Assembly: GCA_010672825.2 (NCBI GenBank)
Contig: JAAHFU020000002.1
Coordinates: 1,996,001-2,060,000, forward strand
Length of the DNA: 64,000 nucleotides
Direction: 5' to 3'
DNA from: Leptolyngbya sp. SIO1E4
GTDB taxonomy: Bacteria > Cyanobacteriota > Cyanobacteriia > Phormidesmidales > Phormidesmidaceae
Positions within the stretch are counted from its first letter, which is position 1, and each line of letters begins with the position of its first letter. The translations under genes were made by a program, and so were the position numbers. Below are positions 1,845 to 4,760 of the stretch, piece by piece. The notes below the pieces were generated by a model that saw only the letters and a program-made list of their open reading frames with translations, was not told the DNA's origin and did not search any database.

Positions 1845-2840
1845 TTATTGAGCATCCCAACTCTTGAGCTGTAAAGCTTCGATCATGCTGTGAATGGATT
1901 CGTAGCTTTCAGAAGGCACAAAACTACTTAAATTAGCGGTTTCTAACGCAGGATGATCTGAAGGAATGTTCAACAGTGCCTCTTTAACAGCTTTAACAAG
2001 TTCTGTATCTGTGCTTATGAGAGAGGCCACTGGCCATTCAGGATATAGATCTGTGGTATGGGTAAAGAAAAAATCATCTTGTCTAGGATCTAAAATTCTG
2101 ATTTCATCTGTGTTTTCGATGAGATTATCTCGCATCATTTTTTCTAACTCGCCGGTGCGAATAAACCCGGCATCAATTGTTCGGTTTAGCACCGCTAGGA
2201 TAATGTTGTCTTGGGAAGGGTTTTCGACAAAGCTAGCAAAGTCTTTAAAGGAGTCAATATTATTCTGGAGTAAGTGATAAATCTGGAAAAGGCAGCCGCC
2301 TGCTGCTGTTTCAAAATTGACACAGGCAACACTCTTGCCTTTCAGATCTGAAAGAGTTTGAATTTCACTATCACTTCTAGTAATAATGAGTCCACTGAAC
2401 TGGGAGCCTGTATTGGGTCGTTCTAGTGTTACCAAGAACTCTGTTCTGTATAACCGCTGAATTTGAACAGAGGCTAACGGGTTACTCGCGATAAAATCTA
2501 GTTCACCGTCAGCAACGTGAGTGAATTGGTTATCCTGACTAAGTGCGATCAGTTCGAAGGGGCGACCCGTTACTTCAGATAAGTAGTCTAAAAGGGGAGC
2601 ATAGCGATCGTGTACCGCAAGAGCACCATTCTTGGCCAGAACACCAAAACGGACGACAGGCTCTGAAGGATTATCTAAACCATTACTATCAACTGTTTCT
2701 TCTGAAACGGGTGATTCAGAAATCGACTCTGGTGCTGAATCTGTATAACTACAAGACGTGAGTATTAAGGTGCAAGTCAGCGCTGCTATTAGGTCAATGT
2801 TGAACTTTCTAAGTTTGCTTAAATCAAAAGTTGAAATCAT
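1845..2840 (-). CDS. PhnD-like periplasmic substrate-binding lipoprotein
   Basis: The product resembles the phosphate/phosphite/phosphonate-type ABC binding proteins (PhnD family): VRFGVLAKNGALAVHDRYAPLLDYLSE is not quoted in full, but FGVLAKNGALAVHDRYAPLL and SDLKGKSVACVNFET are typical. I chose the ATG at 2840 because it gives a proper lipoprotein signal: basic KLRK, a hydrophobic stretch and the lipobox LTSC, so Cys would be lipidated. A longer in-frame ATG at 2918 would put 26 extra residues in front. No ABC permease or ATPase gene lies beside it; instead the hybrid kinase gene starts 33 bases downstream. Inference: it is a sensory binding protein for that kinase, as in other binding-protein/kinase pairs, and not a transport component. 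The ligand cannot be told from sequence. Confidence 0.85.
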   Translation of the reverse strand: MISTFDLSKLRKFNIDLIAALTCTLILTSCSYTDSAPESISESPVSEETVDSNGLDNPSEPVVRFGVLAKNGALAVHDRYAPLLDYLSEVTGRPFELIALSQDNQFTHVADGELDFIASNPLASVQIQRLYRTEFLVTLERPNTGSQFSGLIITRSDSEIQTLSDLKGKSVACVNFETAAGGCLFQIYHLLQNNIDSFKDFASFVENPSQDNIILAVLNRTIDAGFIRTGELEKMMRDNLIENTDEIRILDPRQDDFFFTHTTDLYPEWPVASLISTDTELVKAVKEALLNIPSDHPALETANLSSFVPSESYESIHSMIEALQLKSWDAQ

Positions 2841-3530
2841 GGCAAGTCCAATTATTAAAGATAGTTTTAATTTTATGAAGACTTCATCATGATACCCACC
2901 GGCACAGAAATCAAACATCTATGAGAATGCCTTGTTGTATAGGGGAAACCTCAGAGTTTCCACGCATGACCTGCTATCTTTTACTTAATTTAGAGGAGGA
3001 TGAATTGCGTAAATTTTCAGGAGTTTACGCAATCTTGCTGAAACAAAAGATGAAATTTCACCTCATGTAAGCAACCCTATTTCACACTTAGGTAAGCACT
3101 CGTTTTATGCTGGATCACGTTCTATAAGTACGCTTGGGATGTCAGAACACTACTTAATGAGTCGGCCGCCCAAAGTATTCCAAAGATGTCATTTTGAGGG
3201 AAGGGAAGAATCTTCATCATCTGGACTGCCTTAACACAGATGTGTACTGCTACGCTAGAGAAGCTTTTCTCATTAAGAGACTTAAATGCCTCAAAATCAG
3301 TCTTGACTTGGTGATTGTGGGTCTTGCTTTGAGAATATTCGCTGCACAATGAAGCTGTGATGGGCTACGTCATTGTCTGTCAACTTTTGTCGCAGATCTT
3401 GCGCTGAGAAAGCATAGAGGTGAATGGCATTCAAAACTACGTTGTCGGATTTCCGAACTTCCTCAAAAGTTCAATCGACTACGATAAAATTATCCACTCG
3501 GATTAAGGTCTAATTATTGAAGCTGAGATC
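2841..3530. other. Intergenic region with a possible gene remnant
   Basis: This stretch holds no convincing complete gene. On the minus strand, about 3297-3480, one frame reads plausibly as protein (including DNVVLNAIHLYAFSAQDLRQ) but has a stop just upstream and no start codon, so it may be a decayed gene end. A 75-codon frame at 3122-3349 looks random in composition and was not accepted. The last 50 bases should hold the promoter of the Hint-domain gene that starts at 3531. Confidence 0.4.
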
Positions 3531-4760
3531 ATGGACAGAGCAATTAAAGTGATACAAGTTGGGCTAATCTCTTTGTTGCTCGTAGTCTTTTGTTTCACCG
3601 ACACAGCTTACGCCCGTGGGGGATGTTTTGGAGCGGGTACCCCTATCTTGACTTCAGATGGATATAAGCCCATCGAGCAACTATCTATAAAAGATCATCT
3701 TGTTGGTCTAAATTTTGCTAGTGGTCGTACCGAAGTAGAGGATATCGGCGAGATTCAAGTTGCGCAGGCTTCTGATTATTACCTGATTAATGGCACGACT
3801 GAGGTGACAGGATCTCATCCCTTTTATGTACAAAAAACTAAAGGAGTAGAGCTTATAGAGGTTCATCATCTAGAGGTCGGTGATCACCTGATTGGGGAAA
3901 GTAACTCGCAGCTTGAGATTTCGAGTATTGAGCATATTCAGGCTCCCCTTACGATATATAACCTGGTCGAGGTTACGCCATCTCATAACTTCTATGCAAA
4001 TGGTATTTTAGTTCACAATAAGGGTGGCGGCGGTGGCGGCGGCGGTGGTAGCAGTGGCGGTGTTTATGGAAGAACTGGAGCAGTGGTTCTTAACGAAAAA
4101 ACATTGCCAGGACTCATGTGGGCTCTACTACTGTTAGTTTTAGGGCTAATGCCCTTGGCCTTTTTTCAGGAGATCTGTAATTTGATTCGCTTTAGGAATC
4201 AACCATTTACCCGTGATTCTGCTCTGATTGACTTTACGACAAACATTAACGAAAATTTTGCAAATGCTTACTCTGTCCGATACTCTAGAGACACCGAAAC
4301 TTGGATGCAAACACATCCTTCTCAAGAATTAGATGCTACAGATTATCAAGACTTTATGGGTAGGCATGAACTGATAAATGCAGTTTCTCAATTATTTATA
4401 AAATATCAGAGTGACTGGGCTAAGAAAAATTTCGATGAGATGATTGAATATGTTGATCAACCATTCTATAAAATTCAAAAGAAGACTTTTCTAAATGATT
4501 TTGGTGATAATTTCGACATTGCTTATCAACCCAAGCTACACGCGGTAATTCCTCTAAGTTGTAGTCAGCAAGAGGATAGTTATATTTTAAAATTTCAAAT
4601 TAATGCCGAATTGATCAACTTTGAACTCTCTCCTAAAGGTTATGTTCTTAGCGGAGAAGCTTATCCCAGAGCGTTTACTGAATATTGGACAATTAGGATA
4701 GACTCAGCTAAGGGATGCTGGTTGATTGGCATTAATCAACTTCATGCCAATCAGATGTGA
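3531..4760 (+). CDS. Signal peptide + Hint (intein-like, BIL-type) domain + Gly-rich Tim44-like membrane protein
   Basis: A signal peptide (residues 1-28, ending TDTAYA) is followed after RGG by a complete Hint domain, residues 32-163. It starts at Cys32 (CFGAGTPILTSDGYKPIEQL), has the block-B TGSH motif (His96), and ends SHNFYANGILVHN with His162-Asn163. The next residue is Lys164, not Cys, Ser or Thr, as in bacterial intein-like (BIL) type A domains. Then come a run of nine glycines, a membrane helix (about 194-212) and a C-terminal Tim44-like domain (about 225-405). Known for the family: Hint domains cut or splice their own backbone. Inference: signal peptidase would leave only about three residues before the Hint domain, so self-cleavage at Asn163 would free the Tim44-like protein with a Gly-rich N-terminus. 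The role of the Tim44-like part is unknown. Confidence 0.88.
   Translation: MDRAIKVIQVGLISLLLVVFCFTDTAYARGGCFGAGTPILTSDGYKPIEQLSIKDHLVGLNFASGRTEVEDIGEIQVAQASDYYLINGTTEVTGSHPFYVQKTKGVELIEVHHLEVGDHLIGESNSQLEISSIEHIQAPLTIYNLVEVTPSHNFYANGILVHNKGGGGGGGGGSSGGVYGRTGAVVLNEKTLPGLMWALLLLVLGLMPLAFFQEICNLIRFRNQPFTRDSALIDFTTNINENFANAYSVRYSRDTETWMQTHPSQELDATDYQDFMGRHELINAVSQLFIKYQSDWAKKNFDEMIEYVDQPFYKIQKKTFLNDFGDNFDIAYQPKLHAVIPLSCSQQEDSYILKFQINAELINFELSPKGYVLSGEAYPRAFTEYWTIRIDSAKGCWLIGINQLHANQM

What the first reader, a model, noticed from the sequence alone, without database searches (positions are those of the whole stretch)
3531..4760. Intein-like Hint (BIL type A) domain right after a signal peptide in a Tim44-like membrane protein
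The Hint domain (Cys32 to His162-Asn163) has intact N-terminal Cys, TGSH and HN motifs but is followed by Lys, so standard splicing is unlikely. With the signal peptide removed only Arg-Gly-Gly would precede it. Autocleavage at Asn163 outside the membrane would release or mature the Gly-rich Tim44-like part. A self-maturing envelope protein of this layout is, as far as I can judge, not described functionally.
Basis: partly seen in the sequence, partly recalled or inferred. Interest (0 to 1): 0.7.

Follow-up and report, generated by a model that had tools for sequence, protein, structure and literature searches.

The report
Self-cleaving Hint domain on cyanobacterial membrane protein
A small family of cyanobacterial membrane proteins carries, just behind its signal peptide, an intein-like domain with its core cutting residues intact, which probably clips itself off outside the membrane; similar domains with the same unusual lysine-glycine exit junction turned out to be common in phage proteins.

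Summary
Window 3531-4760 encodes a 409-aa protein: signal peptide (AYA|RGG), a 132-aa Hint domain (Cys32 to His162-Asn163), Lys164, a Gly run, one transmembrane helix and a C-terminal Tim44/NTF2-like domain. The Hint matches PT-HINT (1.3e-10); its best structural matches are bacterial intein-like (BIL) domains. Four orthologues in other cyanobacteria keep Cys1, TG[ST]H, HN and Lys-Gly-Gly; the Hint part evolves more slowly than the Tim44 part. One syntenic orthologue lacks the Hint. The gene is rare (orthologues in 4 other of 390 class genomes; one more holds only a fragment). But Lys at +1 does not exclude ligation, and the second membrane helix keeps the Tim44-like part anchored, probably facing the cytoplasm. 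What autocleavage would free is the Hint itself. Beyond the window, lysine is the commonest +1 residue of intein-like Hints in viral contigs, often with Gly runs on one or both sides and little or nothing upstream, as here. Processing is inferred, not shown.

The parts
3531..3614 (+). signal peptide, residues 1-28, ending AYA
   Evidence: hydrophobic segment 4-22 (KD mean 2.46) and Ala-X-Ala/Ser site conserved in 6 homologues; cleavage itself inferred
3615..3623 (+). N-flank left after signal peptidase: Arg-Gly-Gly (3-11 residues in homologues)
3624..4019 (+). Hint (type-A BIL-like) domain, Cys32-Asn163, 132 aa, single Cys
   Evidence: PT-HINT 1.3e-10; 2lwy 5e-8; fold Z 20-21 to BIL structures; one Cys in every orthologous Hint
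3807..3818 (+). block B motif TGSH (93-96)
   Evidence: TG[ST]H in all five Hint-bearing members
4014..4019 (+). block G His162-Asn163, predicted scissile Asn
   Evidence: intein_Cterm TIGR01443 above cut-off; invariant in five
4020..4061 (+). Lys164 and Gly-rich linker KGGGGGGGGGSSGG
   Evidence: Lys-Gly-Gly invariant in five Hint-bearing members
4110..4166 (+). transmembrane helix, about residues 194-212, followed by RFR
   Evidence: KD mean 2.33; flanking Arg as expected for a cytoplasmic C-terminal side
4308..4736 (+). Tim44/NTF2-like domain, about residues 260-402
   Evidence: PF04280 in orthologues; fold matches to Tim44 and mL45

Best explanation
The protein is exported with its N-terminus outside (periplasm or thylakoid lumen) and its Tim44-like domain in the cytoplasm. 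Signal peptidase leaves Arg-Gly-Gly in front of a type-A BIL-like Hint domain that forms the whole outer part. The Hint then acts on itself: Asn163 cyclises with help from His162 and breaks the Asn163-Lys164 bond, freeing the Hint and leaving Lys-Gly(n)-helix-Tim44 in the membrane. A Cys32 thioester can form at the Gly31-Cys32 bond, so a fraction may end as the ligated form RGG-KGGG; since the N-flank is only a few residues, cleavage and ligation give nearly the same mature protein. Shown here: domain layout, conservation of core catalytic residues, purifying selection on the Hint, predicted topology. Inferred: that cleavage happens, where, and that its purpose is to shed the Hint.
For: Cys1, TG[ST]H, HN and Lys-Gly-Gly invariant across five members at about 45-67% identity. 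The Hint has lower dN than the helix plus Tim44 part in two separate pairs (0.132 vs 0.232, bootstrap P 0.002; 0.034 vs 0.180, P 0 of 5000). Its single Cys is the nucleophile position, so it has no disulphide partner within the Hint. The closest folds are BIL domains with demonstrated chemistry (PMC4031507; PMC8616854). HNK Hints in viral contigs often have almost nothing in front (8 of 30 with 35 aa or less, two with 2 aa; none of 45 with +1 Cys; P 3e-4), which fits a leader that cuts at its C-end better than a splicing element.
Against: No processing was observed. The block F His that is thought to assist Asn cyclisation is Tyr in L004 and Pro in L022, although non-His at this place also occurs in other Hints with intact ends. 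A syntenic orthologue lives without the Hint (L005), so Hint shedding is not essential. Topology rests on hydropathy and charge only.
Confidence: 0.55

Rival explanations
1. True protein splicing: the Hint excises itself and joins Arg-Gly-Gly (or signal peptide plus RGG, if before export) to Lys164 by attack of the free alpha-amine on the Cys32 thioester, so the Hint is a passenger tolerated in a Gly linker.
For: Type-A BILs can ligate without a +1 nucleophile (PMC4031507). Gly on both sides makes the site permissive. A Hint-less syntenic orthologue exists (L005).
Against: Reported type-A BILs mostly cleave. No endonuclease. The Hint-less copy is not a precise excision: it lacks the Gly run too and may keep a Hint start remnant. 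The Hint is more constrained than its host.
Confidence: 0.2
2. Inactive Hint kept as a folded ectodomain, for example for binding.
For: Block F His lost in two members; activity unknown.
Against: Cys1, TG[ST]H, HN, Lys-Gly-Gly all invariant while more than half of the other Hint positions vary.
Confidence: 0.13
3. Lysine-directed transfer: the Cys32 thioester of the Gly-ended N-flank is passed to a Lys side-chain amine (Lys164 or another protein), as reported for Tetrahymena BIL2.
For: BIL2 is the top fold match (Z 20.9), has RGG before its first residue in the aligned PDB chain and is reported to form Lys isopeptides (PMC8616854). Lys at +1 is invariant here and modal in viral intein-like Hints.
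Against: After signal peptidase only 3-11 residues would be transferred. The reactive Lys in BIL2 is described as lying in ubl5, not shown to be +1. RGG similarity may be chance, and L002 has RRG.
Confidence: 0.07
4. Pretoxin-type Hint that frees a C-terminal toxin.
For: Pfam family is PT-HINT; other cyanobacterial Hints sit in large polymorphic-toxin-like ORFs.
Against: C-terminal part is a conserved membrane-anchored Tim44/NTF2-like domain under purifying selection, with no conserved partner gene beside it.
Confidence: 0.03

Closest known systems
Type-A bacterial intein-like (BIL) domains, e.g. C. thermocellum BIL (2lwy)
   Same: 130-155 aa, N-terminal Cys, TxxH, C-terminal His-Asn, non-nucleophilic +1 residue, no endonuclease
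   Different: Reported BILs sit in variable regions of non-conserved proteins (PMC5874633); here the Hint is a conserved, slowly evolving outer domain of an orthologous membrane protein family with a fixed Lys-Gly-Gly exit
BIL2 of Tetrahymena BUBL1 (6y75, 6tmm)
   Same: Best fold match; Gly-Gly before the first Hint residue; Hint with HN end
   Different: Embedded between ubiquitin-like domains in a eukaryote; isopeptide formation reported there, untested here
PT-HINT of polymorphic toxins
   Same: Same Pfam family
   Different: Those lie deep in large toxin-like ORFs with +1 mostly Glu/Ala/Asn/Ser; here N-terminal, +1 Lys, no toxin
Tim44-like proteins (PF04280)
   Same: NTF2-like fold, weak Pfam hits in orthologues, membrane link
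   Different: Hint fused in front; Pfam finds no Tim44 in the window protein itself
HNK Hints of viral contigs (L142, L135, tail-tip proteins)
   Same: Lys at +1, Gly-rich flanks, short N-flank; L142 and L135 Hints group with the window family (95/95) and lie in membrane proteins
   Different: No signal peptide seen; other C-terminal parts; some in tandem

Membership tests
Type-A BIL | N-terminal Cys/Ser nucleophile and TxxH | tested here: met
   Cys32, TGSH 93-96; invariant in five members
Type-A BIL | C-terminal His-Asn | tested here: met
   His162-Asn163; TIGR01443 above cut-off
Type-A BIL | no obligatory Cys/Ser/Thr at +1 | tested here: met
   Lys164, invariant in five
Type-A BIL | 130-155 aa, no endonuclease | tested here: met
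   131-132 aa
Type-A BIL | Hint fold | tested here: met
   Z 20.0-20.9 to 2lwy and 6y75
Type-A BIL | host is a non-conserved, variable protein (descriptive rather than chemical criterion) | tested here: inconclusive
   the host is an orthologous family conserved over several genera, but rare and patchy
Type-A BIL | autocleavage or splicing activity | not testable with these tools
   needs protein expression
Intein | Cys/Ser/Thr at +1 | tested here: not met
   Lys164
Intein | inserted at a conserved site of a conserved protein | tested here: not met
   sits in a Gly linker of a rare, dispensable gene
Tim44-like (PF04280) | Pfam match above cut-off | tested here: inconclusive
   none in window protein; 28.2 bits vs cut-off 29.6 in L004
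Tim44-like (PF04280) | Tim44 C-terminal fold | tested here: met
   human Tim44 Z 11.4, 150 aligned; other NTF2-like folds tied
Polymorphic toxin with pretoxin Hint | variable C-terminal toxin and immunity gene | tested here: not met
   conserved Tim44-like C-terminus, no conserved neighbour

The most novel reading that the evidence does not exclude
Gly-flanked, Lys+1 Hints placed at or near protein N-termini form a functional class of their own: self-shedding caps in which Lys at +1 is selected for the chemistry (fast release or Lys-directed acyl transfer) rather than being a lost nucleophile. The class spans phage tail proteins, phage membrane proteins and this cyanobacterial membrane family.
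Probability: 0.22. Interest if true: 0.75.

Novelty: new variant of a known kind. Interest (0 to 1): 0.5.

Why it matters
The natural role of BIL domains is largely unknown. A conserved family with five natural Hint versions and one natural Hint-less version, in which the N-flank is trivially short, gives a clean test of whether BILs serve to shed themselves. The lysine-glycine exit shared with many viral Hints suggests that the +1 residue of BILs is not random, which bears on reaction mechanism and on protein-engineering use. No paper in the searched library joins Hint and Tim44-like domains; none of those read describes Lys at +1 as a class.

Tried and rejected
Plasmid collection: only Hint-domain hits, no full-length relative. 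Tim44 profile over 291 class genomes: no hit at 1e-3, and it also fails on this gene, so it says nothing about Hint-less relatives. DNA pattern for VHNKGGG in 390 class genomes: only members of this family. Viral scan with the full alignment: no Tim44 relative. Hint remnant in L005: DNA alignment to L002 is suggestive (P 0.008) but protein P 0.09 and DNA against the window 0.76, so loss by deletion is likely but not proved. Lipoprotein reading: no lipobox before Cys32 (read by eye). First automatic Hint census by iterated HMM failed on domain ends (38 of 545 usable) and was dropped. The dN/dS ratio difference was clear in one pair (P 0.0004), not in the other (P 0.26), so I rest on dN. The ARC6 intermembrane domain is an equally good fold match for the C-terminal part by Foldseek; sequence favours Tim44.

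Full report
WHAT IS THERE. The ORF at 3531-4760 (+) encodes 409 aa. From N to C: a signal peptide ending AYA|RGG; a Hint domain from Cys32 to Asn163; Lys164 and a Gly/Ser-rich stretch; one hydrophobic helix at about 194-212; a C-terminal domain at about 260-402. The genome is 8.2 Mb and the gene is single-copy; named relatives (Adonisia turfae, a Halomicronema MAG, a Leptolyngbya MAG, a Xenococcaceae MAG) place it in the cyanobacteria. The Hint is supported by Pfam PT-HINT (1.3e-10), the intein C-terminal model, PDB sequence matches and a predicted fold whose best matches are BIL2 of Tetrahymena (Z 20.9), the C. thermocellum BIL (Z 20.0) and inteins.

THE C-TERMINAL PART. Pfam does not see Tim44 in the window protein, but gives 2.4e-6 for the orthologue L004, 0.0011 for L003 and 0.034 for L022. 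Folded alone with six sequences (mean pLDDT 70; the domain core about 80-94) it resembles mitochondrial mL45 (Z 11.5), human Tim44 (Z 11.4) and the ARC6/PARC6 intermembrane domain (Z 10-11), all NTF2-like. I accept 'Tim44-like' with that caution.

TOPOLOGY. The signal peptide puts the N-terminus outside. The second helix is followed by an IRFR-type stretch in most members, as expected for a cytoplasmic side. So the Hint is outside and the Tim44-like domain inside. Cleavage after Asn163 frees the Hint, not the Tim44-like part.

FAMILY AND CONSERVATION. Four full-length orthologues were found: L002 (66-67%), L003 and L004 (43-46%), L022 (45%). All keep Cys1, TG[ST]H, HN and Lys-Gly-Gly, have exactly one Cys in the Hint and 3-11 residues (R followed by Gly, or RRG) between the signal peptide site and Cys1. 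Block F His is Tyr in L004 and Pro in L022. The family is rare: 6 of 390 class genomes, the window's own included, have the C-terminal part, one of them only a broken 37-position remnant (L035). Neighbouring genes are shared only within a genus.

A NATURAL HINT-LESS VERSION. L005, syntenic with L002 (the same YegS-like gene and small membrane protein on one side, the same gene on the other), encodes 280 aa with signal peptide, helix and Tim44-like domain but no Hint. Its segment GGGFSTLIVTP may be what is left of the Hint start (DNA P 0.008 against L002, weaker by other measures). The Hint is therefore dispensable to the host protein.

SELECTION. In two separate pairs the Hint has lower dN than the helix plus Tim44 part: 0.132 vs 0.232 (P 0.002) and 0.034 vs 0.180 (none of 5000 bootstraps); the dN/dS difference is clear in the second pair only. 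The Hint is not decaying.

MECHANISM. Literature read here states that type-A BILs have HN ends, lack a +1 nucleophile, can splice by attack of the freed amine on the N-terminal thioester, and mostly cleave (PMC4031507; PMC5874633). With only Arg-Gly-Gly in front, cleavage and splicing give nearly the same product. I take Asn-dependent cleavage as most likely. That it happens is inferred.

THE LYSINE JUNCTION. In scans fixing only residues up to VHN, 146 distinct Hint ends had +1 Cys in 79, Lys in 44, all others 23. In a scan anchored at the other end (GCFVAGT), Lys was again commonest: 9 of 34, then Ala 6 and Gly 6 (P 0.0004 against a 7% background). These are capped samples of related sequences, the C-anchored motif was chosen after seeing HNK Hints, and the P values ignore relatedness. 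Cyanobacterial PT-HINTs had Lys in 1 of 24. N-flanks of 35 aa or less occur in 8 of 30 Lys Hints and 0 of 45 Cys Hints (P 3e-4). The Hints closest to the window family lie in two viral-contig membrane proteins, L142 with three Hints in tandem and L135 with one; together they form a supported group (95/95) in which all have Lys at +1.

VERDICT. A conserved type-A BIL-like Hint forming the outer domain of a membrane protein, very probably self-processing, best read as a self-shedding cap; a new variant of a known kind. The link to BIL2-type lysine chemistry is a lead only.

Noticed in passing
L009:1459-3450 (+), L010: In the same cyanobacterial family a Hint (GGGGC...VHNGGGG) sits about 19 residues into a roughly 900-aa ORF; in L009 the rest matches phage central tail fibre J (phrog_31, 1e-143).
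   Followed up: partly
L142:8760-10577; L135:7632-8636: Viral-contig membrane proteins with three tandem Hints or one Hint, all HNK, directly upstream of a LemA-like gene and a TVGYGD channel-like gene in both contigs.
   Followed up: partly
L242 (minus strand, 915-aa ORF), L070:1645-3537: Viral-contig ORFs with one or more Hints that end the protein exactly at VHNK-stop.
   Followed up: no
L071-L150 (many): Hints with an HNKGGG exit near the N-terminus of tail-tip-like viral-contig ORFs, some starting at residue 3 (MC|CF).
   Followed up: partly
L035:1501-1611: Broken remnant of the Tim44-like gene beside the same YegS-like gene in a relative of Adonisia.
   Followed up: partly
G000:C4:915064-915384 (L039): The window's genome has a second PT-HINT inside a 3213-aa open frame.
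   Followed up: no
window 1845-2918 (-): Upstream neighbour is a phosphonate-type ABC substrate-binding protein (PF12974, 2.3e-42).
   Followed up: no
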